A stretch of 64,000 bases of DNA from an uncultured Roseburia sp. (GTDB lineage Bacteria; Bacillota; Clostridia; Lachnospirales; Lachnospiraceae): assembly GCA_947564465.1 (NCBI GenBank), contig CANOCV010000011.1:1-64000 (forward strand). Direction: 5' to 3'. Position numbers and translations under genes: made by a program. The notes beneath the pieces are model-generated. The model had not been told where the DNA came from. It ran no database searches and worked only from the letters and a program-made list of their open reading frames with translations. This document shows, piece after piece, positions 15,683-48,299 of the stretch. The stretch's first letter is position 1; the number at the start of each line of letters is the position of its first letter.

Positions 15683-15689
15683 AAGATCT

Positions 15690-15916: not shown

Positions 15917-16234
15917 ATGGCAAGTCAAGTAATGAGAATCACATTAAAAGCTTATGATCACGAATTAGTAGATTCATCGGCAAAAAAGATCATCGAGACT
16001 GTAAAGAAAAACGGATCACAGGTGAGTGGACCAGTACCACTTCCGACTAAGAAAGAGGTAGTTACCATTCTTAGAGCTGTACACAAGTACAAGGATTCCA
16101 GAGAGCAGTTCGAGCAGAGAACTCATAAGAGACTGATTGATATCATTGCACCGACACAGAAGACGGTTGACGCATTATCGAGATTAGAGATGCCGGCCGG
16201 TGTTTACATTGATATCAAAATGAAATCAAAATAA
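15917..16234 (+). CDS. rpsJ: Ribosomal protein S10
   Basis: This 105-residue component of the 30S head also acts as NusE in transcription antitermination. The start is ATG 15917, with GGAGG 11 bases upstream; an upstream extension of the frame to 15830 is rejected because S10 begins [19 protein letters not shown]. The conserved [15 protein letters not shown] (about residues 60-75) is present. First gene of the ribosomal cluster. Confidence 0.97.
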
Positions 16235-16321
16235 AGTCAACAAATATCCTGAGGGGCCCTAGGGCTTTCTAGGATGAACGGATTTTTCCGTTCCGCTGTA
16301 GAAAAAACAGGAGGAAGAATA

Positions 16322-17005
16322 ATGAAGAAAGCAATTTTAGCAACAAAAGTCGGAATGACTCAAATCTTCGATGCAGACGGCGTGTTAGTACCGGTTACTG
16401 TATTGCAGGCCGGACCTTGTGTGGTAACACAGGTTAAGACTGTCGAGAACGACGGTTACAGTGCAGTACAGGTTGGATTTGTGGACAAGAAAGAGAAGAT
16501 TGTCAACAAAGACGCTAACGGCAAAAAGGAAATCAGAAACAGACATGGCGTAACAAGGTCAGAGATGGGACATTTCAAAAAAGCCGGCGTATCCGGCAAG
16601 AGATTTGTCAGGGAGTTCCGTTTTGAGAATGCCGAAGAGTACAAACTGGCTGATGAGATTAAGGCTGATATTTTTGCAGAGGGCGACAAGATTGACGCGA
16701 CTGCAATTTCAAAGGGAAAAGGATTCCAGGGCGCTATTAAGAGACATGGTCAGCACAGAGGACCAATGGCTCACGGTTCCAAATTCCATCGTCATCAGGG
16801 TTCCAACGGTTCCTGTTCTACACCTAGCCGTGTATTTAAGGGAAAAGGAATGCCGGGACATATGGGAAGCGTAAAGGTGACAACTCAGAATCTGGAAGTG
16901 GTAAGAGTTGACGCTGAGAACAATCTGCTTTTGATCAAGGGTGCTGTGCCGGGACCTAAGAAGGCTCTGGTAACAATCAAGGAAACAGTAAAAGCAGCAA
17001 AATAG
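16322..17005 (+). CDS. rplC: Ribosomal protein L3
   Basis: This 227-residue 50S protein lies close to the peptidyl-transferase centre. The true start is ATG 16322 ([16 protein letters not shown]) behind AGGAGGAAGAAT; the longer frame from 16274 would add residues absent from L3. The long finger loop with [19 protein letters not shown], the site of the conserved glutamine, is intact. An 87-base spacer with a GGGGCCCTAGGGC palindrome separates it from rpsJ. Confidence 0.97.
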
Positions 17006-17034
17006 TGCTGAGGTAAGAAAGGAGGAACACACAG

Positions 17035-17655
17035 ATGGCTACAGTATCTGTTTATAATATGGAAGGCAAAGAAGTAGGCAGCATGGACTTAAACGATGCG
17101 ATCTTTGGTGTGGAAGTGAATGAACACCTGGTGCATATGGCGGTAGTTCAGCAGCTTGCAAATAATCGTCAGGGAACACAGAAAGCAAAAACACGTTCTG
17201 AAGTTCGCGGCGGCGGTAGAAAACCTTGGAGACAGAAGGGAACAGGTCATGCAAGACAGGGTTCGACAAGGGCTCCGCAGTGGACAGGCGGCGGCGTTGT
17301 ATTTGCGCCGGTTCCGAGAGATTACTCTTTCAAATTGAATAAGAAAGAGAAGAGAGCGGCATTAAAATCTGCTCTGACAAGCAGAGTTCAGGAAAATAAA
17401 TTTATCGTATTGGATGAACTGAAGCTTGATGAAATCAAGACAAAGAAATTCGCCGAGGTTATGAATAACTTGAAGGTCGAGAAGGCATTGGTCGTATTGA
17501 ACGACATGGATACAAATGTAATTGCATCCGCAAAGAATATCCCGACCGTTAAGACGGCTCAGACAAATGAAATGAATGTATTTGATGTTCTGAAATATGA
17601 CACGGTAGTAATTACGAAGGCTGCTGCCGAAAAAATCGAGGAGGTGTATGCATAA
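17035..17655 (+). CDS. rplD: Ribosomal protein L4
   Basis: This 206-residue 50S protein has an extended loop, [19 protein letters not shown] (about residues 60-80), that reaches into the exit tunnel and is where macrolide-resistance changes occur in other bacteria; here it is standard. L4 is the autoregulator of the S10 operon in E. coli. Its stop overlaps the rplW start by one base. Confidence 0.97.
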
Positions 17656-17954
17656 TGGCAAACGTACAGTACTATGACGTGATCCTCAAACCGGTCGTAA
17701 CAGAGAAAAGTATGACGGCGATGGCTGAGAAAAAATATACATTTCTGGTGCATCCGGAAGCAAACAAGACAATGATTAAAGAAGCGGTTGAGAAAATGTT
17801 CGAGGGAACCAAGGTGGCAAAGGTCAACACCATGAATATGGAGGGCAAGAGAAAAAGACGCGGCACTACGGTTGGAAAGACTGCTAAGAGAAAGAAAGCG
17901 ATTGTACAGTTGACGGAAGATTCCGCAGATATTGAAATTTTTGCGGGGTTATAA
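17655..17954 (+). CDS. rplW: Ribosomal protein L23
   Basis: This 99-residue protein at the exit-tunnel rim serves as docking site for trigger factor and SRP in bacteria. It begins [20 protein letters not shown], a typical L23 N-terminus, and contains [15 protein letters not shown] near residue 57-71. It is coupled to rplD through the TAATG overlap. Confidence 0.96.
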
Positions 17955-17989
17955 GCTGAACAGCCGAAAACATTGAAAGGAGAACAACA

Positions 17990-18832
17990 ATGGGAATTAA
18001 ATCTTATAACCCATATACACCTTCCAGAAGAAATATGACGGGTTCTGATTTTTCCGAAATCACAAAGAAGACTCCGGAGAAGTCATTGACAACTTCTTTA
18101 AAGAAGAATTCTGGTCGTAACAATCAGGGTAAAATTACTGTTAGACATCAGGGCGGTGGAAACAGAAGAAAATATAGAATTATTGATTTTAAGAGAAGAA
18201 AAGACGGAATTGAAGCTACCGTAATCGGAATTGAGTATGATCCGAACAGAACAGCGAATATCGCGTTGATCTCTTATGCGGACGGTGAGAAGGCATATAT
18301 CCTTGCACCGGAAGGACTGACAGACGGTATGAAGGTTATGAACGGACCGGAGGCAGAGGTTAGAGTGGGAAATTGTTTGCCGCTTGAGAACATTCCGGTA
18401 GGTACACAGGTACACAATATTGAGTTATACGCCGGCAAGGGCGGTCAGATGGTACGTTCCGCCGGCATGAGCGCACAGTTGATGGCAAAAGAAGGAAAAT
18501 ACGCGACTCTTCGTCTTCCTTCTGGTGAGATGAGAATGGTTCCGATCAACTGCCGTGCAACGGTTGGCGTTGTCGGAAACGGCGATCACAGCCTTATTAA
18601 TATCGGTAAAGCAGGACGTAAGCGTCATATGGGTATCCGCCCGACAGTACGCGGTTCCGTTATGAACCCGAATGACCATCCACATGGTGGTGGAGAAGGT
18701 AAGGCGCCGGTTGGACGTCCTGGCCCATGTACACCTTGGGGCAAGCCGGCTCTCGGACTTAAGACACGTAAAAAGAAAAAGGCTTCTAACAAGCTGATTG
18801 TAAGAAGAAGAGACGGTAGAGCTATTAAATAG
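17990..18832 (+). CDS. rplB: Ribosomal protein L2
   Basis: This 280-residue 50S protein is needed for subunit association and the peptidyl-transferase centre. The conserved C-terminal motif [15 protein letters not shown] (about residues 227-241), with the functionally important His, is intact, and the basic tail [17 protein letters not shown] is standard. The ribosome binding site is AAAGGAG. Confidence 0.97.
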
Positions 18833-18850
18833 TAGATAGGAGGAAATACA

Positions 18851-19132
18851 ATGGCTAGATCACTGAAAAAAGGACCATTTGCGGACGAGAGCTTACTGAA
18901 AAAAGTAGATGCTATGAATGCTTCTGGTGATAAGACAGTTATAAAGACATGGTCACGTCGTTCTACAATTTTTCCATCCTTCGTTGGACACACAATCGCT
19001 GTTCATGACGGAAGAAAACATGTACCTGTATACGTGACGGAAGATATGGTTGGACACAAACTTGGTGAGTTTGTAGCTACAAGAACTTACAGAGGACATG
19101 GCAAGGACGAAAAGAAATCGGGCGTTAGATAG
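18851..19132 (+). CDS. rpsS: Ribosomal protein S19
   Basis: This 93-residue 30S head protein contacts S13 and the 23S rRNA across the B1a bridge. It begins [20 protein letters not shown] and has the conserved HNGR-equivalent [11 protein letters not shown] stretch. The site AGGAGG is 7 bases before ATG. Confidence 0.97.
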
Positions 19133-37146: not shown

Positions 37147-37344
37147 ATGATTTTATACCTCTTTGATTTGTAATTCCTGAGTGGGATATATGTTCTTATT
37201 TTAACGCAAAAGTCATGGGATGAAAAGTAAAAGAGACAATATTTTTAGGCACCCATACGGGTGTCCGGGTGAATTGATAGAATTGATGCAAAACAGGGCA
37301 TCCGTGTCACCAAGCAGCGGGCTGACGACAGATCGGCGAAGTTA

Positions 37345-37515
37345 TTATTCCGTATCTTCAATATGGTCTAACGCAAATTGGATACTCTGATTAATCAGCT
37401 GGTTGCGGCTGATAGATTTCTTGGAAGCAATTTGGTCCAGCCTCTTTAGGACGTTTGTATCAATACGAATCGAGATGACTTCTTTTTCTGTTTTTTGGGG
37501 AATGAATTTATTCAT
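37345..37515 (-). CDS. Small ribbon-helix-helix DNA-binding protein (CopG-like)
   Basis: A 56-residue frame begins MNKFIPQKTEKEVISIRIDT and has the RHH pattern: a short beta strand VISIRID followed by two helices with SRNQLINQSIQFAL. AAGGTGATT lies 2 bases before the ATG. Such proteins regulate plasmid, toxin-antitoxin or metabolic genes as dimers. No partner toxin is adjacent: the leftward neighbour is mutS2 and the rightward one is divergent. It may regulate the divergent WYL operon, which is inference. Confidence 0.8.
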   Translation of the reverse strand: MNKFIPQKTEKEVISIRIDTNVLKRLDQIASKKSISRNQLINQSIQFALDHIEDTE

Positions 37516-37603
37516 ATAATCACCTTTTTTTCTTTTTATTGTATTGGAAAAACGGCTGACTTTATATATTCTATATCATAATCGGAAAATGAATACAAAA
37601 TGA

Positions 37604-37632
37604 TTGCAGAACAGGAAAAATAATGGTAATAT
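37604..37632 (+). promoter_or_regulatory. Sigma-A promoter of the WYL-GTPase-ATPase-toxin operon
   Basis: TTGCAG (37604-37609), 17 bases, TAATAT (37627-37632). It lies 60 bases before the WYL start and is the only good promoter found ahead of the cluster down to 47530. An AT-rich palindromic run (ATGTATATAAATACAT, 37631-37646) overlaps the expected start point and could be an operator. Confidence 0.65.
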
Positions 37633-37692
37633 GTATATAAATACATGTCAAAAAATGGATTTTTTGGCAGAAATAGACAAAGGGGAACTGAA

Positions 37693-38679
37693 ATGAGCGA
37701 AATGAAGCGAAGCAGGGTACTGGACATTTTTTTCCGGACAATGAAAGGTGAGGACGTATCCGTTAAGAAACTGGCAGATGAGTATAAAGTATCGTCAAAA
37801 AGCATATCTCGTGACATCAGTGAAATCAAAAGTTTCCTCGCAGACAACCGTGAGCTGGTGGGCAATGCGGAGCTTGAATATTCCCACAAGAGCCGCGCGT
37901 ACCGTCTGAGCATGAAAGAGTTTTTAAAGAACGAGGAACTAATCACAATTATCAAAATTCTAATCGGCAGCCGTGCGTTGAGCAAGATGGAGCTGTTGCA
38001 GATCATCGGTAAATTAAAAGGGTTTACCACTTACCAGGACAGGCTTTTAGTCGAAGAATTAATTCAAAAGGAAATATATCATTACCGAGAGGTGGGACAT
38101 GACTGCATGAGCGTGGAGGCTATGATTTGGAAGCTGACGAAGTGCATTCATGAGAGAACCGAAATCAGTGTGCGCTATTATAAGGTGAGCAGGGAGGATG
38201 TCACAAGGCGTCTGCGTCCGGTAGCCATTATTTTCAGCGAGTACTATTTTTATTTAATAGCGTACCGCACAGAGGACTGTGATTTTACACCGATTTATTA
38301 CAGAGTCGACCGGATTATAGAGATGATAGAGCATCGCACGCATTTCGAGTCTGACGAGCGGTATGAGTTTGATGAGGGGGAGCTGCGCGAGCGGATTCAG
38401 CTTATGTTTCCGGGGAAGGACCGCAAAATTCGTTTCGAATACTATGGCCCGTCCGTGCAGGCGATTCTCGATAAGCTGCCGACAGCGAGAGTGACCGAAG
38501 TCTATGGGAATACGAAGGTGATTGAAGCGGAGGTCTACGGAGTCGGGGTGAATATGTTTCTGCTCTCGCAGGGGAGCTGGGTGAAAGCGATAGGGCCAAA
38601 GGAGTTTGTGGAGGAGATGCGGAATGAGGTCGTGAAATTGATGGAGTATTATGAGGGGGATAGTGTGAATTCGGTTTGA
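37693..38679 (+). CDS. WYL-domain transcriptional regulator
   Basis: This 328-residue regulator has an N-terminal helix-turn-helix (about 18-55, with LADEYKVSSKSISRDISEIK) and a C-terminal WYL ligand-sensing domain (about 145-225, with RLRPVAIIFSEYYFYLIAYR) plus a WCX-like tail. ATG 37693 is supported by AAAGGGGAACT and by the promoter position; a frame opening at 37645 would begin before or at the transcript start. WYL regulators such as BrxR and CapW repress phage-defence operons. Being first in this cluster, 13 bases before the GTPase gene, it is likely its repressor. Confidence 0.9.
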   Translation: MSEMKRSRVLDIFFRTMKGEDVSVKKLADEYKVSSKSISRDISEIKSFLADNRELVGNAELEYSHKSRAYRLSMKEFLKNEELITIIKILIGSRALSKMELLQIIGKLKGFTTYQDRLLVEELIQKEIYHYREVGHDCMSVEAMIWKLTKCIHERTEISVRYYKVSREDVTRRLRPVAIIFSEYYFYLIAYRTEDCDFTPIYYRVDRIIEMIEHRTHFESDERYEFDEGELRERIQLMFPGKDRKIRFEYYGPSVQAILDKLPTARVTEVYGNTKVIEAEVYGVGVNMFLLSQGSWVKAIGPKEFVEEMRNEVVKLMEYYEGDSVNSV

Positions 38680-38692
38680 GGGAGGTTGTGTG

Positions 38693-40213
38693 ATGGAGGA
38701 AAAGGATACGGAAGCGCAGGGATTGATTAGCAGTACATTTTTTTCAAGAGCAATTGCGGTTGACCACACAAAGGTTTTCCCGGTGATGGTATTGGCGACA
38801 ATGTCGAGTGGAAAGAGCACTCTTATCAATGCGTTGCTTGGGGAGGATATACTGCCAAGCAAGAATGAAGCGTGTACGGCAAAGGTATATTCTATCTTAG
38901 ATGACGATTCTATGGAAGAACCAAAGCTGTATATTACATCAAACGATGGACATGTAAACGTGATTGAAGAAAATCTGGCTGCGGCGTTGGAAGAGGCAAA
39001 CAATACAGATACCGTTAAAGATATTTTGATTTCCGGTGATATTAAAGGTGTGTTTAACACAGATAAAGCACTGCTTGTTATTGATACGCCGGGACCCAAT
39101 AATTCACGCGATGCACTGCATGAATCTATCACAAAGAATGTGCTTGATAAGCTGTATGGCGGGCTTATCTTATACGTTATGAACGCGACACAGATGGGAA
39201 TTAACGATGATTGTCAGTTGTTGAGCATTTTGAGAGCGCATATGCAAAAGCACAAAAAAGTGAAGGTAGTTTTTGTGATTAACAAAATGGATGCGATAGA
39301 TTTTGAAAAGGAATCCGCGGCCGAACTGATTTGTGAGATAAAGAAGTATATTGAAAATAATGGAATTGATAATCCGGATATCATTCCGGTGTCTGCTCTG
39401 GCGGCCAATCTTTTTAAGAAAGTATTAGAGGGTGAGAAACTTACAAGGAGTCAATACAAAAGTTTTTTAGCTATGTATGAGCTGTTTCGGACATCGGATA
39501 TCCGAATGACATCCTATGCAATGACGGAAGAAGTGCCAAACCGCATGAATAAAATTGTTGTGCGCGAGATGGAATATACGGTTGCGGAAATTATGGCGGC
39601 GATTGAAAATACGGGTATTACCTATCTCGAAAATTATATACAGGAGGCGCAGATTCTCAGCAGTGAAAATTCTTCGGTGAAGATAAATCTAAAGAGTGCA
39701 GTTACAAAATTTTCCATTGAATACCATCCTTATCTATTGAAGTACACGTTTAAGAAAAACGGAAAAAGATTAAGTGCGTACAATGAAATCCGAAAAAGAG
39801 CCAATACGGTCCTTTTCCGGAATTTGTTTGAAAAATCAGGAAATTGGTCCGGATTGACCGCAGAAATTGTAAAGCTTTGCAATACTCCGGAGGTAGAGAT
39901 TCATTTTACCGGAAGGCAAACAGACTACAATGATTTAAAGGGATGTATTGACCAATATAACGGCAGCGCCGTCATTCATTTGTGCTTTGATAAATGCCAC
40001 AGTGATGCAGAATTGATACAGGAGCTGGATCAAATTGTATCGGATGCAAAAAGTGTGATTCCACAGCCCGCTGCAAGAAACCGGGAAGGAAGAAATATAT
40101 ATGAGGTTTATGACGAAGCAAAGAACGGGGAGTGTGACGGCGAATATCATTTAAAAGTCAAGGAGGCGTTTGACGATATTATTCGGATCAGGAATAAATG
40201 GAATATTACTTAA
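38693..40213 (+). CDS. Dynamin-like GTPase with permuted domain order
   Basis: This 506-residue protein starts at ATG 38693 behind GGAGGT. The GTPase domain comes first: P-loop ATMSSGKST (35-43), G3 IDTPGPNNSRD (about 129-139), G4 INKMDA (about 195-200). From about residue 335 to 480 it carries a module (VTKFSIEYHPYLLKYTFKKN ... REGRNIYEVYDEAKNGE) that is homologous to the N-terminal 150 residues of the next protein. In the next protein that module stands before the GTPase. It also lacks the long helical C-terminal half of the neighbour. It is probably a membrane-active GTPase subunit working with its paralogue. Confidence 0.85.
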   Translation: MEEKDTEAQGLISSTFFSRAIAVDHTKVFPVMVLATMSSGKSTLINALLGEDILPSKNEACTAKVYSILDDDSMEEPKLYITSNDGHVNVIEENLAAALEEANNTDTVKDILISGDIKGVFNTDKALLVIDTPGPNNSRDALHESITKNVLDKLYGGLILYVMNATQMGINDDCQLLSILRAHMQKHKKVKVVFVINKMDAIDFEKESAAELICEIKKYIENNGIDNPDIIPVSALAANLFKKVLEGEKLTRSQYKSFLAMYELFRTSDIRMTSYAMTEEVPNRMNKIVVREMEYTVAEIMAAIENTGITYLENYIQEAQILSSENSSVKINLKSAVTKFSIEYHPYLLKYTFKKNGKRLSAYNEIRKRANTVLFRNLFEKSGNWSGLTAEIVKLCNTPEVEIHFTGRQTDYNDLKGCIDQYNGSAVIHLCFDKCHSDAELIQELDQIVSDAKSVIPQPAARNREGRNIYEVYDEAKNGECDGEYHLKVKEAFDDIIRIRNKWNIT

Positions 40214-40368
40214 AAATATACGATTCTATCGAGCTTCTTGGGGGCTTCGTATGTTTGGCAGTGAAGAGGATGGGATAGATCCAAAATCGATCAATGGTTC
40301 ATATCTATATGAGTTGATGGGAGACAAATTTCACGAACCCCAATAAATACATTGAGAGGAGAAAAGAA
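40214..40368 (+). other. Spacer between the two GTPase genes with broken reading frames
   Basis: Two short frames without ribosome binding sites overlap: 40198-40278 (MEYYLKIYDSIELLGGFVCL) and 40251-40346 (MFGSEEDGIDPKSINGSYLY). Joined by a frameshift they would read as one protein-like tail. They may be the remains of a gene end left by the rearrangement that created the permuted GTPase. The GTPase 2 ribosome binding site GAGAGGAG is at the end. Confidence 0.4.
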
Positions 40369-42669
40369 ATGACAAAGTTTTCAATAGAATACAATCCGTA
40401 TCTTGTGGAATGTGTATTCCGGAAAAACGAAAAGGTATTGAATAGTAACAGTAAAATCGGAGCAAAATCAGGGGAAAGACTGCAGGCATTATTAGGAGAG
40501 TCCGGGAATTGGAAAGGACTTCCGGAAGAGATTGCGAATGCGTGTGACGATGATGAGGTTGAAGTTACGTTTAAAGGAAGGAGGATTGATTACAACGACC
40601 TAAAGGATACGATTGAATTGTATAAGGGGAATGTTCGTTTTAAATTATTATTTGAAGAATCCAAGAATGATGCGGATGTCATGAAAGAGTTGGATAAAAT
40701 ATTCAATGATATTAAGCAGAAGAACATACCGGAGTTTCAGGCTGAAAATGAGGAAGGGAAAGATATTTTTGACGCCTATGAAGAGGTAAAAAACGGAATT
40801 TTTGAAGTCAGCGTTATTGCGACAATGAGCAGCGGAAAATCAACATTGATCAATGCGCTTTTGCATACAGAACTTCTTCCTTCCGAGAACAAAGCATGTA
40901 CGGCAACAATTTGCCGTATTCTGGATAATGATGAAATGGAGCAGTATGAGGCTGCATGTTATGCGAATGACGAAACAGTAATTCATCCGAGAACGGTTGT
41001 GACACCGGAGATGATGAGGGAATATAATGCCGACGAAGCGATTACATATATTGATATTGAGGGAAGTGTTCCGGCAATTCCAAGTGATAAAATCAGATTA
41101 TGTTTGAGAGATACTCCGGGACCGAACAACTCAAGAGATGAGAATCATGAGCGGTTAACCAGTTCCATTATAAAAAGAACAAATGCGGTTGTGCTGTATG
41201 TTATGAACGCAACACAAATCGGTATCAATGATGATGAGCAGCTGTTGAAAAGTATTTCCAATGAAATGAAAAGAGCAGGAAAGCAGTCAAGAGATCGTTT
41301 TATTTTTGTAATAAATAAGTGTGATGCATTAGATGAGGAGAAAGGCGAAACGACGGAGAAATTACTGAAAGATGTAAAAGATTATCTAAAGGGCTTTGGC
41401 ATAGTGGAGCCGACACTGATTCCTACAAGCGCACGTCTCGCTTTACTCATTAGAAAAGAGCGTAAGGGTGAAAAGTTATCCAGGATGGAGAGACAGACTT
41501 TATCTCAGGTAGAGGACTTCGTAGAAATTGACAAGCTGCATTTTGAGAAAAATGCAACGCTCACGCCGACAGTACATGAAAAATTGCAAAGAGATGTAGA
41601 GCGTTTTCATGCAGATGAGGAGAATTGGGATTTAGAGGCGCTGATTCATACCGGAGTTCCGGCCGTAGAGGAGACAATCTGTGAATATATTGAGAAGTAT
41701 GCGTATCCAATCAAAATAAAGGATGCCATTAAGGACATAAAAGGAATCCTGGATGAATTAAACATGAAAGCCAAGTTTGCGGAAAGTATTGCGTTTGATA
41801 AAGATCAATTAGACAAAGTCCGTGCACAGATTAAAGAGGCTGAGAAAAAGAACGCTGCCGGTAAAAACATATATGATTCTTATAAAGAGAAGATCAGTAA
41901 TTTCCGGCTAGATTCAATAAGTGAAGAGGATGAACAGGTTTCTGTTGAAGTGGAACTGCGAAGAATGGTAAAAGAATATGATAATAAGACAAACATTGAT
42001 AAGATGGAAGCGGATAGGCTGATAGAGTCATTTCAGGAAACATTGAACAGATTCCAAAAAAACTGCGAAACAAGGTTAAACAGGGAAATTGATATGAAAA
42101 TATTCCAGAAATGCAGTGAATTATTGGAGGAATATACGACCATGATCCGTGAGACGCTCGACGATATTAAAATTGACGGATATGATTTCAGAAAGAGTAA
42201 ATCGTTTGAGAGAATCAAGATTTCAAATGTAAGTGAAATTAAAAAGAGAAATGAGCGGGAACGGTATCGAAATGAAACGAGATGGAAAGATAATCCGGAA
42301 CGTTCCGGCTTTTTTGGTTTTTTTAAATTCTGGAAACCGAGGGAAATTTCGTATACTGTAACAGTTAAAGACGGTGTAGATGTAAATGTAAGGAATGTTA
42401 TTGTTGACATTATGACTATGTTTGCAAAAAGCATAAAAGAAAATATAAGCAGTATATTCCGGCAGTCGGAGGAACAGGTTGAAGAATACAAGACAGTTTT
42501 TTATGACAATATTGATACACTGAGTTCAGAAATAGATAATATATTGAATCGGCTGAAGGAAGATACAAAAGAATCAAAGGAATTGGAGAAACGCGTAGAA
42601 AAAAATAAAGAAATAGCGGCGTGGGTTGAAAATAAGGAAGAAGAGATTAAAACTTTGTTGATGTTCTAA
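40369..42669 (+). CDS. Dynamin-like GTPase, full-length paralogue
   Basis: This 766-residue protein begins with a module of about 148 residues (MTKFSIEYNPYLVECVFRKN ... EGKDIFDAYEEVKNGI). The GTPase follows with P-loop ATMSSGKST (about 151-160), G3 LRDTPGPNNSRD (about 247-258) and G4 INKCDA (about 316-321). The last half is long, charged and helical, with coiled coils and a short hydrophobic patch RSGFFGFFKFWKP (about 645-657) that could touch membrane, as paddle regions do in bacterial dynamins. It may remodel or tether membranes on GTP hydrolysis. No exact family name can be given. Confidence 0.88.
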   Translation: MTKFSIEYNPYLVECVFRKNEKVLNSNSKIGAKSGERLQALLGESGNWKGLPEEIANACDDDEVEVTFKGRRIDYNDLKDTIELYKGNVRFKLLFEESKNDADVMKELDKIFNDIKQKNIPEFQAENEEGKDIFDAYEEVKNGIFEVSVIATMSSGKSTLINALLHTELLPSENKACTATICRILDNDEMEQYEAACYANDETVIHPRTVVTPEMMREYNADEAITYIDIEGSVPAIPSDKIRLCLRDTPGPNNSRDENHERLTSSIIKRTNAVVLYVMNATQIGINDDEQLLKSISNEMKRAGKQSRDRFIFVINKCDALDEEKGETTEKLLKDVKDYLKGFGIVEPTLIPTSARLALLIRKERKGEKLSRMERQTLSQVEDFVEIDKLHFEKNATLTPTVHEKLQRDVERFHADEENWDLEALIHTGVPAVEETICEYIEKYAYPIKIKDAIKDIKGILDELNMKAKFAESIAFDKDQLDKVRAQIKEAEKKNAAGKNIYDSYKEKISNFRLDSISEEDEQVSVEVELRRMVKEYDNKTNIDKMEADRLIESFQETLNRFQKNCETRLNREIDMKIFQKCSELLEEYTTMIRETLDDIKIDGYDFRKSKSFERIKISNVSEIKKRNERERYRNETRWKDNPERSGFFGFFKFWKPREISYTVTVKDGVDVNVRNVIVDIMTMFAKSIKENISSIFRQSEEQVEEYKTVFYDNIDTLSSEIDNILNRLKEDTKESKELEKRVEKNKEIAAWVENKEEEIKTLLMF

Positions 42670-42681
42670 GGGGGTGTTATT

Positions 42682-43122
42682 ATGCAGCGGTATGATGCGA
42701 TTGAAAGCGGAATAGAAAAAAACGATATAAAGACATTGAGAGAGGCGATAGGAAGTATCTGCTATACAAGCACGGATTTTTCAAGCGGTGAATTTGATGA
42801 AATAGTAAGGTATGTAGAGGCGAAGGGCATAAAATTAAAAGATGATACGTTGATTGGAAATCCTCTTATTTCAAGTACAAAGAGTTCTTTTTCCGATGAG
42901 GATTTTGCAAGGGCGGTTTTTGAATTAAAACGAAATTTCTGTGACGAAAGAATTGGGGATGTTAAGAAGATCGGGAAAGCGCTTTATGCATCAGACAAAC
43001 AGGAACCGGGTAAACGCCCAAACGCACAAAGCCACCAGCAGGAAAGTCGTCTTCCAATGATAGCAGGACTGGTGGCAGCGGTGATAATCATAGCAGTTGT
43101 AATCTTACTGCTAAGGAGGTAA
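42682..43122 (+). CDS. Tail-anchored small membrane protein
   Basis: This 146-residue protein has a helical cytosolic part (about 1-100, with TLREAIGSICYTSTDFSSGE and FARAVFELKRNFCDERIGDV), a polar linker, and one C-terminal membrane helix, MIAGLVAAVIIIAVVILLLRR, so it should be tail-anchored. It lies 12 bases after GTPase 2, with GGGGGTG before the ATG. I recognise no named family. Its position suggests that it recruits the GTPases or the ATPase to the membrane, which is inference. Confidence 0.75.
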   Translation: MQRYDAIESGIEKNDIKTLREAIGSICYTSTDFSSGEFDEIVRYVEAKGIKLKDDTLIGNPLISSTKSSFSDEDFARAVFELKRNFCDERIGDVKKIGKALYASDKQEPGKRPNAQSHQQESRLPMIAGLVAAVIIIAVVILLLRR

Positions 43123-43145
43123 AGAAGAACTTTGGCTGTACGAAT

Positions 43146-43448
43146 ATGCGTAGCTGTATATCTTGCGGCAAAAATAAAAATTGCGACGAAGGTGGAGCAA
43201 AGAATTATAGACAGTATGTGCGCAAACGGAACAGGGAGTTAAAGGAACGATACAGGTGTGACCGTGTGAATGGTCTATGCAAATTAGATAAATGTAAATT
43301 CTATAAAGAGTGTGATAAAAAAGCCAAGAAAAAGTATGAAGCATGGCGTGCCGCTTTTAGCAAAAGTAAAAAAGAAGAATTAGAAAAACTATCCAAAGGA
43401 GATTATAGTTATGGACACTCAAGTGGCGGAAGTACAAGATATGAATAA
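43146..43448 (+). CDS. Cys-rich basic small protein
   Basis: This 100-residue frame starts MRSCISCGKNKNCDEGGAKN and has two further pairs (YRCDRVNGLCKLDKC, FYKECDK), so two metal-binding knuckles are possible. The rest is Lys/Glu-rich and helical. AAGGAGG lies 27 bases upstream, too far for a normal start, so translation is perhaps coupled to the preceding stop at 43122. It overlaps the ATPase start by 38 bases. The family is not recognised. Confidence 0.6.
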   Translation: MRSCISCGKNKNCDEGGAKNYRQYVRKRNRELKERYRCDRVNGLCKLDKCKFYKECDKKAKKKYEAWRAAFSKSKKEELEKLSKGDYSYGHSSGGSTRYE

Positions 43449-46400
43449 GCTTGCCATGTCTTTGGATTTGGCAAAAGATGTAATTACCAGAGATTATCTT
43501 TATCAATTAAGCGAATATTCTGTTGCAGAATTGCCGGAAGAATTTAAAGAGCTTGACATTGCCGATTATACCAGAATTTTTAAATTTACAAAAATGGTAT
43601 CGGATAAGAAAGAGAGCATGATTGATAAATTTGTAACGGTTTTAAATGCAGCATATTCAAGCAATGCGACGGTTGTGACTTTGATATCCGGGCATAAGGA
43701 GTATACAGAATATTTTCTGGGGGTTGTGAGTAAAGATATAGATCAGCAAAATCATATCATCGAAACACAAGGAGAAATACTGAAAGGAGTATTAACAGGT
43801 AATTTTCCGGGATTGGAAATTGAAGCTATTTCGGGAGTAAGCAAAAAACAGCTTCTTCATAATGCGTTTGTTTATGATTATGTGACATCTATATCAGGGA
43901 TTGCGTCTATTCGAAATGAGAAGGAAAATGCATATGAAAAATTCGTTCAGGGGATAGAGCATTTGGTGGATTCTTTGCAGGGGAAAGAATATAGCGTTGT
44001 GGTGATAGCAGATCCGGTGGATGCGAAAGAGATTGCTCTTGCCAAAATGGGATATGAGACGCTTTATACACAGCTTTCGCCGTTTTTGAAAACATCTGTA
44101 AGCTTTAACGAATCGGAATCTATCACATTGACTCAGACGCATACGGAAGGCGTTACACAATCTATCGGGGAAAGCAGCTCATTGACGCAGAATTACTCTA
44201 AGACAAGCGGATGGAGCGAAACTTCCAGCCATGGCACCAGTACGAATAAAGAGACCGGTCATCTGGTTGGTTCATTGCTGGGTGCCGGAATAGGTGCGGC
44301 GGCCGTAATATTAACCGGAGGTGCAGCGGCTCCGGCAGTTGCAGCATATATGGGCAGTCAGATTGGTGCTTCGGCAGGCGGGGGCATGATAGGTTCGAAA
44401 GGAACGAATACAAATCAGTCTGTTACAGAGACAGGCAGTATGACGGAGTCATCCGGTAAGACTGAGACAAGAACAAGCTCTACGGCCACACAAAACAGCG
44501 ATTCCAGTAGCGAGGCGGAGGGTGCCACGCATGGTAAAACGCTCCAATTTTCGAATGAAAACAAGACAGTGAAGAATTTATTGCAAATGATAGACAAGCA
44601 TGTTGAGCGTCTGCAAAAGTGTGAGGCATATGGGGCATTTAATTGTGCAACTTATGTGATTTCATCAGACCCTGAGACAAACGCGATTGTATCAAGTGGA
44701 TATAATGCTCTTATGCGGGGAGATAACTCGGCATTGCAGGCATCCCATATAAATAATTGGAATGTGAATGATAAAAATGGTAAAATGGTGAAGGAGTACC
44801 TAGAGAGATTTTCTCATCCTTTATTTATAAATCCAATTAAGAATGATGTTTTGTTCAGCCCTGCATCTATTTCAAATTCTTATGAACTTGCGGTTAATAT
44901 GGGGCTTCCCAAAAAATCAATTAGCGGCCTGCCTGTTTTTGAAATGGCTTCATTTGGCAGGAATGTGTTTGATACCAATCCGCGAAAGGATGCATTGTGG
45001 CAGATTGAGCTTGGTAACATTTATCATATGGGTAGCGAACAGAAAGTAAGTGTGAATCTGAATCTTAAGAGTTTGGCGATGCATACTTTTGTAACGGGTT
45101 CGACCGGTTCGGGAAAATCAAATACGGTATATCAGATGCTCAGGGAACTAAGCAGACAAAAAGTACATTACCTTGTGATTGAGCCGGCAAAAGGGGAATA
45201 CAAGTATGTTTTTGGGGACTCTGACGCCAAAGTGTATGGAACAAACCCGTATATTACGCCGTTGTTACAGATCAACCCGTTTAGATTTCCAAAAGGAATC
45301 CACGTATTAGAGCATATTGATCGTTTGGTTGAGATTTTTAATGTATGCTGGCCTATGTATGCGGCAATGCCGGCGGTGTTAAAAGATTCTGTTGAGCGTG
45401 CATATATAAACGCGGGATGGGATTTGGCGGCTTCACATAACCAATTTTCGGATATGTTATTTCCGACTTTTGCGGATATATTAAGCGAATTGAACCGTGT
45501 CGTAGACGAATCGGCATTTTCACAGGAGGTAAAGGATAATTATATAGGCTCTTTGGCGACAAGGATAAAATCATTAACGAATGGAATTTACGGCAGAATA
45601 TTTGCAAATGATGAGCTGGGGGATAAGAAGCTGTTTGATGAGAATGTGATAGTAGATCTTAGCAGAGTAGGTTCGATTGAAACGAAATCTATGATAATGG
45701 GTATTCTGGTTATGAGATTACAGGAATACCGCATGACGTCCGGTGATATGAATGCAGATCTGAAACATGTAACTGTTTTAGAAGAAGCGCACAACTTACT
45801 TAAGAAAACCTCAACGGAACAAAGCAGTGAATCATCGAATCTATTGGGAAAATCGGTTGAAATGTTGGCGAATGCCATTGCCGAAGTGAGAACTTATGGG
45901 GAGGGATTTATCATTGCGGATCAGGCGCCGGGCCTGCTTGATATGAGTGTTATCAGAAATACTAATACCAAAATTATCATGCGCTTACCGGATGCCGAAG
46001 ATAGGAGTTTAGTAGGAAAATCTGCGAATTTATCGGAAGAGCAGATCAAAGAACTATCCAAGATTCCGACAGGCGTTGCGGCGGTATATCAAAATAACTG
46101 GTTGGAGCCGGTGTTGTGTAAGATTAAGTACGAGAAGACAGGGAATACATACCACAATGCGGATTCCGCGGCGGTGTCACAGAAGCCGGAAGATGTGACA
46201 GTGATGAATAAGCTGTTGAGCAAGGTTGCCGGCGAAAAACTGGATATGAACATGGATGAGCTGGTTCAAGTTATTGTGAATTCTTCTATACCAACAAAAA
46301 GTAAGGCGGAGAGCATAAGAATACTAAGTCGAAACGGTGAGGTGGAACTAAAGGATATCAGTTCCGTAGTATATGAAATTGTAAGTACGCCTGAGTTGGA

Positions 46401-46602
46401 AAGAGAGGCCGATAATGCGGAATCAATAGAGGAGTGGAAGAATACGTTCGTGTATGCGGAAGGTTCTGTGGTTGCTGATTTGACCGAAAAACAACAAAAT
46501 CAAATAGCCGAGTGTATTTTAAGAGAAGAGATTGCCCGCCATGATAAACCGGATGAATATCTTGAAACATGGTATAAATACACGAAAGGAGAGGTGATTT
46601 AA
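43411..46602 (+). CDS. HerA/FtsK-like ATPase with internal glycine-rich membrane-like segment
   Basis: This 1063-residue protein has a novel N-terminal part (1-250). A Ser/Thr-rich stretch (about 235-275) is followed by a hydrophobic Gly/Ala run (about 282-329, with GSLLGAGIGAAAVILTGGAA) and another Ser/Thr stretch. The HerA-type ATPase core (about 490-910) has P-loop TGSTGSGKSNTV (about 560-572), DExx-type Walker B VLEEAHNLL (about 788-796) and PTGVAAVYQNNW near 890. Related DUF87 ATPases pump DNA or power protein export. Next to a toxin and immunity pair, a role in moving or processing the toxin is an attractive inference. ATG 43411 follows AAAGGAGA. Confidence 0.85.
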   Translation: MDTQVAEVQDMNKLAMSLDLAKDVITRDYLYQLSEYSVAELPEEFKELDIADYTRIFKFTKMVSDKKESMIDKFVTVLNAAYSSNATVVTLISGHKEYTEYFLGVVSKDIDQQNHIIETQGEILKGVLTGNFPGLEIEAISGVSKKQLLHNAFVYDYVTSISGIASIRNEKENAYEKFVQGIEHLVDSLQGKEYSVVVIADPVDAKEIALAKMGYETLYTQLSPFLKTSVSFNESESITLTQTHTEGVTQSIGESSSLTQNYSKTSGWSETSSHGTSTNKETGHLVGSLLGAGIGAAAVILTGGAAAPAVAAYMGSQIGASAGGGMIGSKGTNTNQSVTETGSMTESSGKTETRTSSTATQNSDSSSEAEGATHGKTLQFSNENKTVKNLLQMIDKHVERLQKCEAYGAFNCATYVISSDPETNAIVSSGYNALMRGDNSALQASHINNWNVNDKNGKMVKEYLERFSHPLFINPIKNDVLFSPASISNSYELAVNMGLPKKSISGLPVFEMASFGRNVFDTNPRKDALWQIELGNIYHMGSEQKVSVNLNLKSLAMHTFVTGSTGSGKSNTVYQMLRELSRQKVHYLVIEPAKGEYKYVFGDSDAKVYGTNPYITPLLQINPFRFPKGIHVLEHIDRLVEIFNVCWPMYAAMPAVLKDSVERAYINAGWDLAASHNQFSDMLFPTFADILSELNRVVDESAFSQEVKDNYIGSLATRIKSLTNGIYGRIFANDELGDKKLFDENVIVDLSRVGSIETKSMIMGILVMRLQEYRMTSGDMNADLKHVTVLEEAHNLLKKTSTEQSSESSNLLGKSVEMLANAIAEVRTYGEGFIIADQAPGLLDMSVIRNTNTKIIMRLPDAEDRSLVGKSANLSEEQIKELSKIPTGVAAVYQNNWLEPVLCKIKYEKTGNTYHNADSAAVSQKPEDVTVMNKLLSKVAGEKLDMNMDELVQVIVNSSIPTKSKAESIRILSRNGEVELKDISSVVYEIVSTPELEREADNAESIEEWKNTFVYAEGSVVADLTEKQQNQIAECILREEIARHDKPDEYLETWYKYTKGEVI

Positions 46603-47123
46603 TGCATTCATTCAGCGAAGTGAAAGAAATAAAGAAGCCGACGCAGGAGGTTGGAAATAAGTCAAAGGGATTTGAGAATACAACAAAAGAGGTAAACGAG
46701 CCAAGACACATTTCGACGATCAATGAGAATTTGGCGGGAAAAACATATCCAGGGACAGATGTAAGATATGAAAAACATGTATTTAGGATGAATGGTGAGA
46801 AAGTGGAAGGTGTTTTCCCCAGATTTGAAAGTAAGTTTGATACATATTTACCGAAAGACTGGCGAAATGCTAGTGATAATGCACAATTTAAGTATTGTAC
46901 GGAGAAGCTGAAACAGCGTATAGAGCATGACCCTGAGTTTGCAAAGCAATTTACACCAAGACAGCTTGAACAAATAAAGGACGGCGCACCGAGAATATCG
47001 GGTTTGACATGGCATCATAATGAGGTTCCGGGAAAAATGCGATTGGTCAATGCCCAACAGCATGATACATGCAGACATACCGGAGGCAGGAGTGTTTGGG
47101 GTGGCGGCTCCGGATGCAGATAG
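46602..47123 (+). CDS. HNH/Endo VII-type nuclease toxin (WHH motif)
   Basis: This 173-residue protein starts on a TAATG overlap with the ATPase gene, with AAAGGAGAGGTG upstream. The C-terminal half contains FPRFESKFDTYLPKDWRNAS and GLTWHHNEVPGKMRLVNAQQ followed by HDTCRHTGGRSVWGGG, the pattern of HNH/Endo VII 'WHH' nucleases seen as C-terminal domains of polymorphic toxins. The first 60 residues are polar and lack a signal, LXG, RHS or other known trafficking domain. It should cleave nucleic acid in a target cell or in its own cell. The SUKH gene just after it is the expected immunity partner. Confidence 0.88.
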   Translation: MHSFSEVKEIKKPTQEVGNKSKGFENTTKEVNEPRHISTINENLAGKTYPGTDVRYEKHVFRMNGEKVEGVFPRFESKFDTYLPKDWRNASDNAQFKYCTEKLKQRIEHDPEFAKQFTPRQLEQIKDGAPRISGLTWHHNEVPGKMRLVNAQQHDTCRHTGGRSVWGGGSGCR

Positions 47124-47131
47124 GAGGATAT

Positions 47132-47530
47132 ATGAATATAAAATGGAATTATAAAATTGATTTAGCGGATGAAAAAGTGTTTTCTGAGATTGAGAAGGAC
47201 AGAGAGATTGAAATTCCCCAGAATCTTGTAAATTTAATAAAAGAGGGAAACGCGGCGACACCTGAGCGATATAAATTTATCGTTGGTTCCACGGAAAGAG
47301 TTATAGGTGCGATTTTATCATTCAATAGAAACGAAGCGGATACAGATACCGTGTTTACTGCATTATCAGTTATTGATAACAAAAGTTTAATGCCGTTCGC
47401 TATTGATCCGTTTGGAAATTATATATGTATGGATTTACAAAAGTGTACAGTGGTATTTTGGGACCATGAAACAGGTGACGTATTTAGCACAGATAAAGAA
47501 TTGGATAGTTTTATGGATAGTTTGTATTAG
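47132..47530 (+). CDS. SUKH (SMI1/KNR4-like) immunity protein
   Basis: This 132-residue acidic protein starts at ATG 47132, 5 bases after TAGGAGG and 8 bases after the nuclease gene. The pattern EIPQNLVNLIKEGNAATPER ... PFAIDPFGNYICMDLQKCTV and VVFWDHETG matches the SUKH superfamily, the commonest immunity family next to nuclease toxins. It should bind and block the preceding HNH nuclease. It is the last gene of the cluster; a hairpin follows. Confidence 0.88.
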   Translation: MNIKWNYKIDLADEKVFSEIEKDREIEIPQNLVNLIKEGNAATPERYKFIVGSTERVIGAILSFNRNEADTDTVFTALSVIDNKSLMPFAIDPFGNYICMDLQKCTVVFWDHETGDVFSTDKELDSFMDSLY

Positions 47531-47544
47531 TAACATTTATAATT

Positions 47545-47590
47545 CGTATGACTGTACTGCTTATGGAGCCATATTCAGTGCAGTTATACG
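47545..47590 (+). terminator. Hairpin after the immunity gene, possible terminator
   Basis: CGTATGACTGTACTG (47545-47559) pairs with CAGTGCAGTTATACG (47576-47590), including two G-U pairs, 15 bases after the stop. The tail AAAAATCAATATG is not U-rich on the plus strand, so its strength is doubtful. The rest of the spacer to 47783 is AT-rich and shows no gene. Confidence 0.45.
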
Positions 47591-47783
47591 AAAAATCAAT
47601 ATGTGAGTAATTCGTTAGTTTACATTTTTTTAATTTGCGCATTAATTTAAAGTGGACTATACTAAATCATATCTAAAATTTATATTCTTACAATCACTTA
47701 CGGCATTCGCCGTATCAAGCTTCTGTTCGTAGAAGCGTTCAATTTTCACCCAAATTACAATTCAAGTTAAGAGGAGGAGAAAT

Positions 47784-48251
47784 GTGCCGCAGAAAGGCAT
47801 TCTCGGAATTGATTCGGACAGACATGGGATAAGGCTGGATGTGTATATAGAAGAAGTGGCGGATGGTTCGATCGGTTATGAGGATGGTGCGACAAAGATA
47901 TTTTTGTATACGAAAGGGAGGGAAGGAAATCCTAGCCAGGCCCTTGCGGATATGTTAAAATACATAGAAGAAACAACCGATGACAATGTGACCAATCAGG
48001 ATATAGAGTCAGTGCACAATATCGTGAAAAAGGTGAAGAAAAAGAGGGAGGTAGGGATTAACTATATGAAGTCATGGGAACGTGAAGCGCTTGCAAAGGA
48101 AGAGGGAAAAGAAGAGGGCAGGGAAGAGGGGCAGATTCGAATTAATGAGTTAATTGTGAGATTGTCTGATGCAGGACGAGTGGAGGACATCGTAAGGTCT
48201 GCTAAGGACAAGGAGTATCAGGAAAAGCTTCTGGAAGAGATGGGACTATAA
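47784..48251 (+). pseudogene. Truncated and internally deleted Rpn/PD-(D/E)XK-family nuclease
   Basis: A 155-codon frame opens at GTG and reads GIDSDRHGIRLDVYIEEVAD then jumps to GYEDGATKIFLYTKGREGNP and KYIEETTDDNVTNQDIESVH. In Rpn/PDDEXK_2 proteins the GIRLDV motif is followed by about 90 residues of the nuclease core (with the catalytic ExQ) before the DGATKIFLNTKG block. Those residues, and the N-terminus, are missing here. The C-terminal helical part with EEGKEEGREEGQI is complete. It is most likely a decaying copy of a common multicopy family. Confidence 0.8.
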
Positions 48252-48299
48252 GTTTACGGGCACATTTTCTATAATAAAGCGGTAAAAACAAGAAAAACA

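What the first reader, a model, noticed from the sequence alone, without database searches (positions are those of the whole stretch)
37604..47530. Candidate undescribed operon: WYL regulator, two dynamin GTPases, tail-anchored and Cys-rich proteins, HerA ATPase, HNH toxin, SUKH immunity
Seen: one strong promoter, eight genes in one direction, gaps of 12-24 bases or overlaps (a 155-base gap between the GTPases is the exception), and no internal terminator. Known: WYL proteins repress defence operons, dynamins act on membranes, HerA/FtsK ATPases translocate polymers, and WHH nucleases with SUKH partners are polymorphic toxin pairs. Inference: the GTPases and tail-anchored protein could form a membrane platform for the ATPase, which handles or delivers the nuclease or triggers it upon phage attack. 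I know of no named system with this set.
Basis: partly seen in the sequence, partly recalled or inferred. Interest (0 to 1): 0.85.

Follow-up and report, generated by a model that had tools for sequence, protein, structure and literature searches.

The report
Dynamin–HerA machine with swappable toxins
This is a recurring bacterial gene cluster in which membrane-shaping proteins and a pump-like motor are followed by a toxin gene that is exchanged for quite different toxins from one bacterium to the next, so it looks like an unrecognised weapon-handling machine, although nobody has yet tested what it does.

Summary
The observation largely holds: eight co-directional genes (WYL regulator, two dynamin GTPases, tail-anchored protein, Cys-rich protein, HerA-type ATPase, WHH nuclease, SUKH immunity). 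The 'strong promoter' was not confirmed. In 54 of 80 named loci, the best of 547 HerA relatives, the order dynamin–tail-anchored protein–HerA–toxin–immunity recurs (42 Bacillota, 6 Spirochaetota, one each in three other phyla, 3 unplaced). A dynamin-family GTPase lies within three genes upstream of HerA in 73 of 80. The downstream toxin is exchangeable: 94 form 8 C-terminal clusters plus 8 singletons. Toxins of different cluster often share an N-terminal leader when their HerA proteins are similar. HerA diverges together with both dynamins and the tail-anchored protein, but hardly with the toxin or WYL. So the platform is one unit carrying modular polymorphic toxins with immunity partners. In the window's genome it is an 11-kb insertion between mutS2 and htrA that four relatives lack. 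Copies lie on conjugative E. coli and Lactococcus plasmids. Delivery to neighbouring cells is inferred; anti-phage use is not excluded. Eight paper searches and passages of three papers showed no description of it.

The parts
37249..48283 (.). 11.0-kb insertion carrying the operon, between mutS2 and htrA
   Evidence: blastn against the empty site of G647 (L199): homology stops at window 37248 and resumes at 48284; mutS2-htrA distance 208, 152, 166 and 153 bp in G647, G649, G646 and G648
37345..37515 (-). small divergent ORF (56 aa), ribbon-helix-helix-like by eye; possible operon regulator
   Evidence: ORF list; family recalled, not tested
37645..38679 (+). WYL-domain transcriptional regulator (probable start 37693)
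   Evidence: WYL PF13280 1.4e-9; same-strand upstream in 21 of 54 Dyn+TA loci
38690..40213 (+). DynA: dynamin-family GTPase with an extra C-terminal copy of the DynB N-terminal domain
   Evidence: Dynamin_N 4.3e-16; residues 338-481 duplicate DynB 1-144; GTP-binding residues invariant in a 21-row alignment
40369..42669 (+). DynB: dynamin-family GTPase with N-terminal 'NPY' domain
   Evidence: Dynamin_N 1.1e-17; G1, G3 and G4 residues invariant in a 24-row alignment
42682..43122 (+). Tail-anchored protein: helical domain 1-102, linker, transmembrane helix 129-145
   Evidence: AlphaFold2 mean pLDDT 87, 92-98 over residues 1-100; C-terminal transmembrane segment in 57 of 60 loci
43146..43448 (+). 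Cys-rich small protein, seen only in near relatives
   Evidence: tblastn in 7 relatives; no Pfam match passes its cut-off
43411..46602 (+). HerA/DUF87 ATPase: N-domain 1-~240, Ser/Thr/Gly-rich linker, ATPase ~530-905
   Evidence: DUF87 4.2e-13; NF033849 2.5e-33; Walker lysine K569 and E791/E792 invariant in a 14-row alignment; N-domain model
46602..47123 (+). Toxin: N-terminal leader plus C-terminal Colicin-DNase/WHH nuclease domain
   Evidence: PF12639 4.1e-23, PF14414 5.2e-10; leaders shared across toxin classes in the family
47132..47530 (+). SUKH-family immunity protein (132 aa; the longer ORF starts at 47069)
   Evidence: SUKH_6 3.9e-12; near relatives 128-132 aa; RBS-like sequence before 47132

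Best explanation
A polymorphic-toxin system with its own handling machine. SHOWN by comparison: (1) DynA, DynB, the tail-anchored protein and HerA form one co-inherited platform; (2) the next two genes are an exchangeable toxin and, by family and position, its immunity protein; (3) toxins are modular, with a leader that follows the HerA lineage and a C-terminal domain that does so much less. INFERRED mechanism: the dynamin pair and the tail-anchored protein build a GTP-driven membrane platform on the inner face of the cytoplasmic membrane. The HerA motor (a hexamer in known relatives) docks there through its N-domain, recognises the leader, and uses ATP to move or load the otherwise cytosolic toxin out of the producer and into neighbouring cells, possibly through membrane contact or fusion. 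The SUKH or other immunity protein protects the producer and its kin. WYL or another regulator sets expression. Confidence by step: one conserved unit with swappable cargo 0.93; leader recognised by the platform 0.75; export to other cells 0.5; dynamins acting by membrane bridging or fusion 0.35.
For: Gene order dynamin-TA-HerA-toxin-immunity in 54 of 80 named loci; a dynamin-family GTPase within 3 genes upstream of HerA in 73 of 80, and a same-strand gene within 250 bp downstream in 80 of 80, a second in 77. In the 54 loci, intergenic medians of 13 (DynB-TA), 15 (TA-HerA, 45 direct pairs), -4 (HerA-toxin) and 12 bases (toxin-immunity). Toxins: of 96 scanned, Colicin-DNase 52, LHH 11, Endonuclea_NS_2 11, papain-fold deamidase 2, metallopeptidase 2, HNH 2, GH-E 1. 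Immunities: of 91, SMI1_KNR4 38, DUF6985 22, YezG-like 3, SUFU 1. Leaders: 73 of 298 N-terminally similar pairs join different toxin clusters. Among different-class pairs, leader score >=60 in 25% (n=81) and 44% (n=41) at HerA identity 0.7-0.8 and above 0.8, against 0-2% below 0.7; 0 of 500 permutations reach the correlation. Mantel rho HerA-DynB 0.71, HerA-DynA 0.65, HerA-TA 0.57 (0 of 300 permutations each), HerA-toxin C-terminus 0.12 (6 of 300), HerA-WYL 0.12 (38 of 300). Downstream second cassettes whose leader matches that of another system's toxin but whose C-terminus is another toxin in L115, L126 and L139. HerA N-domain resembles R388 type IV secretion chains including VirB4/TrwK (7o43_A Z 8.1, 172 residues, 4.8 A) and ESX chains (7b9f_E Z 8.7, 128 residues, 3.4 A).
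Against: No export was shown. No outer channel, pilus, needle or fusogen was recognised among the window genes. The VirB4/ESX likeness is at the level where it may be only a common arrangement (Z about 8; no Foldseek hit at E<=0.001), and the VirB4 family PF03135 finds nothing in the window's own genome. The same machinery occurs in a diderm host (E. coli plasmid), where a membrane-fusion route must cross two membranes. The seven PDB sequences that match the HerA profile are titled HerA, DNA helicase, DUF87 or ATP-binding protein; none is titled a secretion motor. The 80 loci were chosen as the best HerA matches of 547, so the census describes the near clade and is not a random sample; more distant HerA relatives (6 of 20 inspected family loci, L052-L057) have other neighbours and no recognisable toxin. 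rho for leader against HerA over all different-class pairs is small (0.16), and the toxin C-terminus is not wholly independent of HerA (6 of 300). Not every downstream gene is a proven toxin: 8 of 94 are singletons, some without any Pfam match.
Confidence: 0.5

Rival explanations
1. Intracellular defence: the dynamins and tail-anchored protein sense membrane damage from phage, the HerA motor then frees or activates the nuclease, which kills the infected cell or degrades phage DNA. The immunity protein holds the toxin silent until then.
For: Defence-library models match the window proteins: WYL 1.9e-18; for the ATPase mad8 6.8e-22 and HerA 9.5e-20; for DynA LeoA 1.1e-8 over the G domain. HerA-DUF4297 is an ATPase-nuclease anti-phage complex (PMC11291478, listing and start of abstract only). 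The toxins show no obvious signal peptide by eye (not tested).
Against: Exchange among unrelated toxins with immunity partners of several families is, from established knowledge, the mark of conflict between cells. Second cassettes behind the same kind of leader are hard to explain for a sensor-effector pair. No defence model covers the dynamins in full, the tail-anchored protein, the nuclease or its partner.
Confidence: 0.27
2. Vesicle release: the dynamin pair pinches off membrane vesicles into which HerA loads the toxin, as proposed for LeoA-dependent toxin output in E. coli, rather than direct contact-dependent transfer.
For: [quoted passage not shown] bacterial dynamins usually occur as operon pairs and one pair tethers membranes (PMC6104087, passages); two dynamin genes in 46 of 54 loci, some of the rest cut by contig ends.
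Against: LeoABC has no HerA, leader or immunity gene as far as I recall; there are no vesicle data here; most carriers are Bacillota, most of them presumably with a thick wall.
Confidence: 0.12
3. Addiction or island stabilisation: toxin and immunity keep the insertion or plasmid in the cell; the platform serves another purpose such as DNA transfer.
For: The operon is a genomic insertion; its HerA was not found in the 7 other genomes of the genus and four of them have an empty site. Copies sit on conjugative plasmids. HerA-type motors move DNA; the archaeal DNA-translocating ATPase model CedD is the second-best NCBIfam match (1.9e-28, below its cut-off).
Against: Addiction does not need a four-gene platform or a leader that tracks HerA. 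Pfam names no relaxase or integrase among the nine ORFs scanned, and no direct repeat of 16 bp or more was found.
Confidence: 0.08
4. Chance neighbours: two unrelated operons lie side by side.
For: The 155-base gap between the GTPases; HerA relatives without dynamins exist.
Against: Conserved order in loci of several phyla and joint divergence.
Confidence: 0.02

Closest known systems
[quoted passage not shown] 2012, PMC3482391; 12 passages seen)
   Same: Conserved N-terminal part plus variable C-terminal toxin domain; immunity gene directly downstream; SUKH and SuFu immunity as described there; toxin families such as WHH, LHH and NS nucleases (their use in these systems recalled).
   Different: No RHS, WXG/LXG, TcdB or PVC trafficking domain was recognised; the toxin is a short separate gene behind a HerA motor with dynamins and a tail-anchored protein. 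In the held text (first 300,000 of 357,715 characters) 'dynamin' occurs 0 times; the HerA passages shown concern the T7SS ATPase.
Type VII secretion (ESX, EssC/EccC)
   Same: FtsK/HerA-superfamily motor and exported nuclease toxins with immunity (recalled); weak fold likeness of the N-domain to ESX chains.
   Different: One DUF87 ATPase domain and no WXG100 match among the window genes; dynamins present.
Type IV secretion (VirB4/VirD4)
   Same: HerA-superfamily ATPase; N-domain likeness to R388 T4SS chains including VirB4/TrwK at Z about 8.
   Different: PF03135 (CagE_TrbE_VirB) has no match in the window's genome; no channel or pilus family among the window genes.
LeoABC / Eleos dynamins
   Same: Operon-paired bacterial dynamins; DynA hits LeoA (1.1e-8) and LeoBC (2.9e-6).
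   Different: The LeoA match covers residues 126-258 only; HerA, TA protein and toxin/immunity are not part of those systems (recalled).
HerA-effector anti-phage complexes (HerA-DUF4297, HerA-SIR2)
   Same: HerA-type ATPase next to a nuclease gene.
   Different: Far below the HerA_antiphage cut-offs; neighbour is a colicin-like nuclease with a SUKH partner; dynamins and TA protein present.
NCBIfam NF033849 'serine-rich protein'
   Same: Best named family for the ATPase (2.5e-33, 114.6 bits, best stretch 383-906).
   Different: Far below the family cut-off (650 bits); the name gives no function.

Membership tests
Polymorphic toxin systems | Variable C-terminal toxin domains behind a conserved N-terminal region | tested here: met
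   8 C-terminal clusters (two of them NS nucleases) plus 8 singletons among 94 toxins; 73 of 298 N-terminally similar pairs cross clusters; leader follows HerA
Polymorphic toxin systems | Immunity gene directly downstream | tested here: met
   Second same-strand gene in 77 of 80 loci; SUKH in 38, YezG-like in 3 and SUFU in 1 of 91; that they neutralise the toxin is not shown
Polymorphic toxin systems | A known trafficking domain or secretion locus (RHS, WXG/LXG, TcdB, PVC, T6SS) | tested here: not met
   No such Pfam family in the window proteins or among the 13 families found at E<=0.001 in 96 toxins
Polymorphic toxin systems | Toxin inhibits neighbouring cells | not testable with these tools
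   Needs competition assays
Type VII secretion system | WXG100 substrate and EssC/EccC with several FtsK domains | tested here: not met
   No WXG100 hit among the window proteins; one DUF87 domain
Type IV secretion system | VirB4 ATPase (CagE_TrbE_VirB) and channel proteins | tested here: not met
   PF03135 has no match at E<=0.001 in the window's own genome and is not among the 25 of 70 families shown for 60 N-domains; no channel families in the operon
Type IV secretion system | VirB4-like N-domain fold | tested here: inconclusive
   VIA-align Z 7.5-8.1 to R388 T4SS chains, model pLDDT 75; Foldseek no hit at E<=0.001
LeoABC / Eleos | LeoA and LeoBC as full-length homologues | tested here: not met
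   LeoA matches residues 126-258 of DynA only; LeoBC 40-340 with 24.7 bits; DynB matches neither
HerA-effector anti-phage systems | SIR2, DUF4297 or similar effector paired with a HerA equivalog | tested here: not met
   HerA_antiphage models score 56.6 and 33.2 bits against cut-offs of 800 and 850; neighbour is Colicin-DNase/WHH
HerA-effector anti-phage systems | Protection against phage | not testable with these tools
   Needs plaque assays
Dynamin family (DynA, DynB) | Dynamin_N G domain with intact G1, G3 and G4 motifs | tested here: met
   Pfam; invariant G-K-S, D-x-P-G and N-x-x-D residues in alignments of 24 and 21

The most novel reading that the evidence does not exclude
A previously unrecognised protein-delivery machine: a heterotypic dynamin pair and a tail-anchored anchor form a GTP-driven membrane platform that couples a VirB4/HerA-like ATP motor to leader-tagged polymorphic toxins and transfers them between bacterial cells. 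As far as I know it would be the first secretion-like system built on dynamins; its loci come from records of six phyla (some metagenome bins) and from conjugative plasmids.
Probability: 0.4. Interest if true: 0.95.

Novelty: new variant of a known kind. Interest (0 to 1): 0.86.

Why it matters
Polymorphic toxins are sorted by the machine that exports them; a toxin family whose leader follows a dynamin-plus-HerA platform suggests an uncatalogued machine, one that recurs in Lachnospiraceae, Paenibacillus, Brachyspira and others. It also offers a concrete role for operon-paired bacterial dynamins, whose function is mostly unsettled. Copies on a Lactococcus cremoris plasmid and an E. coli plasmid make the question testable in laboratory strains. 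If it proves to be defence rather than delivery, it would still be a new kind of effector-swapping anti-phage system.

Tried and rejected
A sequence search for the tail-anchored protein found no homologue outside the window's genome in 250 family genomes at E<=1e-4: it is too divergent, and was recovered only with a profile at the right position. Distant HerA relatives L052-L057 were looked at and set aside: other neighbours, no recognisable toxin; four more family hits (G104, G107, G118, G149) were not opened. Testing the VirB4 likeness by sequence failed: PF03135 has no match in the window's genome and 20 relatives and is not among the families shown for the N-domains (25 of 70 shown). Structure search with the tail-anchored domain gave nothing (Foldseek best E 4.5; best Z 4.1); absence of a listed fold is not proof of a new one. 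A phylum-wide profile search for DynB (398 genomes) gave 32 genomes at E<=1e-15, but among the listed matches only the window's genome and G546 match over the whole profile. G546 has the whole operon, but its contig length equals that of the record behind L095, so it is probably the same genome and not new evidence. The others match in part, i.e. are mostly other dynamins; of those I opened G252, G430 and G503. The reverse test is therefore clean but small. G252 has WYL plus two large dynamins without HerA before its contig end. The empty site could not be read in G056 but was in four other congeners; G650 had neither flank above threshold. The literature query combining HerA, dynamin and polymorphic toxin returned 0 papers; dynamin with polymorphic toxin returned 2 papers, both on Neisseria meningitidis. 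'Coiled-coil architecture' was my first label for 16 loci; it was wrong: the 720-aa protein (tested in L047, the same record as L077) and the 536- and 521-aa proteins (tested in L085) match Dynamin_N.

Rows dropped before counts: from the 106 downstream genes I removed L052-L057, L077, L105, L138, L140 and L142-L144, and added the window (94). The Pfam scans used 96 toxins and 91 immunities, each with the window's own. Near-identical loci (for example L078, L079, L081) were kept. In one search the toxin C-terminal identities are taken across unrelated classes, so that rho is crude. The fewest changes of toxin class on a FastTree of the ATPase core of 94 loci was 37; I made no shuffled control for that figure. 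The gene caller was my own simple script, so some starts are wrong.


Full report
WHAT IS IN THE WINDOW. The eight genes are real and on one strand. Pfam identifies WYL, two dynamins, DUF87/HerA, Colicin-DNase/WHH and SUKH above their curated cut-offs; the fourth and fifth proteins match nothing above cut-off. The fourth is predicted as a compact helical domain (residues 1-102, block pLDDT 92-98 to residue 100), a loose linker and a C-terminal transmembrane helix. The fifth, Cys-rich, is found in seven near relatives. The ATPase has an N-domain, a Ser/Thr/Gly-rich linker and a HerA-type motor whose Walker residues are invariant in a 14-row alignment. Both dynamins keep their GTP-binding motifs in alignments of 24 and 21. 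GTPase-A carries an additional copy of the N-terminal domain of GTPase-B (residues 338-481), absent from the 325-347-aa DynA of L058, L061 and L062, so a partial tandem duplication is the simplest reading. The claimed strong promoter was not found by the scan.

IT IS AN INSERTION. Of 8 genomes of the genus only the window's has this HerA at E<=1e-20 (three of the others are under 90% complete). In four congeners mutS2 and htrA are 152-208 bp apart; against the G647 site the window's homology breaks at 37248 and resumes at 48284. A fifth congener (G645) has a different 6.7-kb stretch there. No direct repeats of 16 bp or more were found across the element.

THE UNIT RECURS. In 250 family genomes HerA is found in 24 (E<=1e-20) and GTPase-B in 5; in all 5, one of them the window's own genome, the two are neighbours. 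The order WYL-DynA-DynB-TA-HerA is seen whole in the window, G176 and G185 (with two TA genes there). In G196 (L039) the contig starts inside DynA and DynB has an internal stop; in G105 (L041) the contig ends inside HerA. A profile scan of named genomes gave 547 HerA relatives, of which the best 80 were kept. In 54 of these a dynamin and a TA gene stand upstream, 16 have a second dynamin-bearing set, 4 have dynamin without TA, 2 are cut by the contig end with only TA in view, and 4 are other. Counting all dynamin types by my profiles, 73 of 80 have one within three genes upstream on the same strand; four of the other seven start less than 0.9 kb into their contig, and L083 (of the second set, dynamin not resolved by my caller), L098 (Sel1-repeat proteins instead) and L109 remain. 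The record titles place 66 loci in Bacillota, 7 in Spirochaetota and one each in Fusobacteriota, Bacteroidota, Campylobacterota and Synergistota, with 3 unplaced; several are metagenome bins, so single-phylum cases need care. Operons annotated by the depositors as two 'dynamin family proteins', a hypothetical protein or two, an ATPase and an endonuclease with its partner lie on a conjugative E. coli plasmid (without WYL; a transposase lies upstream), a conjugative Lactococcus cremoris plasmid and a Treponema saccharophilum plasmid, both with WYL. By megablast, only that one of 5426 complete E. coli genomes carries near-identical DNA. Seven viral contigs, 42 plasmid records at E<=1e-20 and 2 phage records hold HerA relatives; I opened the neighbourhoods of the 7 viral contigs and 3 plasmids only.

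THE TOXIN IS CARGO. Directly after HerA (median overlap 4 bases in 54 loci) comes a gene of changing identity. Of 96 scanned, 52 match Colicin-DNase, 11 LHH, 11 Endonuclea_NS_2, 2 a papain-fold glutamine deamidase, 2 a metallopeptidase, 2 HNH and 1 GH-E (families can overlap). Seven share a C-terminus that looks restriction-nuclease-like to me and has no Pfam name that I could assign. The second gene matches SMI1_KNR4 (SUKH) in 38 of 91, DUF6985 in 22, YezG-like immunity in 3 and SuFu in 1. Toxins of different C-terminal cluster nevertheless share leaders: 73 of 298 similar pairs. Between different classes a leader score of 60 or more (shuffled 99.9th percentile 45.5) is seen in 44% of 41 pairs with HerA identity above 0.8, in 25% of 81 pairs at 0.7-0.8, and in 0-2% below 0.7; same-class pairs share leaders more often still (89% and 75%). 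Three loci carry a further downstream gene whose leader matches a known leader of another locus and whose C-terminus is another toxin (L115, L126, L139). They come from 1386 flanking genes tested, of which 7 rows matched: these three, one duplicate of L139, two duplicates of known toxins, and one in L142 that looks like a regulator and that I take as chance. Joint divergence is strong for HerA with DynB (rho 0.71), DynA (0.65) and TA (0.57), 0 of 300 permutations each, and weak for the toxin C-terminus (0.12, 6 of 300) and WYL (0.12, 38 of 300).

HOW IT MOST LIKELY WORKS. The comparative facts say: a co-evolving membrane-linked GTPase/ATPase platform, cargo tagged by a leader that follows the platform, and a partner of immunity type. 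From established knowledge, HerA/FtsK-superfamily motors drive substrate translocation in T4SS and T7SS; bacterial dynamins occur in operon pairs and one pair tethers membranes (PMC6104087, passages); dedicated immunity with free toxin exchange marks conflict between cells (PMC3482391, passages). The inference is an export or injection machine. The model of the HerA N-domain is of moderate quality (pLDDT 75, pTM 0.63). Its best structural matches after VIA alignment are an ESX-5 chain (Z 8.7), five chains of the R388 type IV secretion system (Z 7.5-8.1; the entries of two are titled TrwK/VirB4, and the others align over nearly the same residue range) and an ESX-3 chain (Z 7.1), all secretion machinery, standing above unrelated rows at 6.5 and lower. 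The tool warns that Z near 8 may mean a common arrangement, and Foldseek itself found nothing at E<=0.001, so this is a pointer, not proof.

WHAT COULD OVERTURN IT. The strongest rival is an intracellular defence device, given WYL, HerA and dynamin precedents (PMC11291478, listing and start of abstract only). Against it stand the toxin exchange, the immunity partners and the further cassettes. Vesicle release and element maintenance are possible variants.

RELATION TO WHAT IS KNOWN. It meets the architectural tests of a polymorphic toxin system but not the test of a known trafficking module. It is not a T7SS (no WXG100, single ATPase domain), not a recognisable T4SS, not LeoABC and not a HerA-SIR2 or HerA-DUF4297 system (membership table). 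Eight searches of the held library showed no description of it in their listings, nor did the passages seen in Zhang 2012, Kaur 2020 and a 2025 T4SS review ('dynamin' 0 times in each held text). That library has no preprints and lacks most subscription papers, so prior description cannot be excluded.

Noticed in passing
L085, L074, L077 and others (16 of 80 named loci): A second platform type precedes the same kind of HerA plus toxin plus immunity: proteins of about 535, 521 and 720 aa (dynamins where tested: 536 and 521 in L085, 720 in L047, the same record as L077), a protein with a weak beta-helix match (L074, below cut-off) and small unknowns.
   Followed up: partly
L046 and L050: HerA with an M48 membrane peptidase upstream (Pfam-tested in L046) and a transmembrane 'NPY'-type protein between HerA and the toxin; the viral contigs L138 and L142-L144 also have an NPY-type protein near HerA; no dynamin seen upstream by my profiles.
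   Followed up: partly
L052-L055: Distant HerA relatives with zinc-ribbon/transmembrane proteins (L052, L053) or with Hsp70-like, LytTR-like and cysteine-protease-like genes by eye (L054, L055); other conserved HerA gene sets of unknown role.
   Followed up: no
window 38690-40368: Partial tandem duplication: GTPase-A residues 338-481 repeat the N-terminal domain of GTPase-B, followed by a 155-base spacer that may be a remnant.
   Followed up: partly
window 37345-37515 (-): 56-aa ribbon-helix-helix-like ORF divergent from WYL inside the insertion, a possible second regulator (family recalled).
   Followed up: no
window 47784-48251: Fragment resembling the C-terminal part of a recombination-promoting nuclease/transposase (recalled; no Pfam match above cut-off) at the right end of the insertion; two similar stretches of 211 bp in G056.
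   Followed up: partly
L198 (G645:C31): A different 6.7-kb set (two transporters, dehydrogenase, aminotransferase and GntR-like genes by eye) sits between htrA and mutS2, so the site may be an insertion hotspot.
   Followed up: partly
L182 (G252), about 5619-10968: WYL followed by two about 710-aa dynamins with no HerA before the contig end: a possibly related two-dynamin system.
   Followed up: partly
L091 and L096 (Brachyspira): Three dynamin genes in a row (536, 524 and 798 aa) before TA and HerA.
   Followed up: no
L040 (G185), 15598-19001: The operon lies next to genes that look like DndB, DndC and DndD (phosphorothioation defence) by eye.
   Followed up: no
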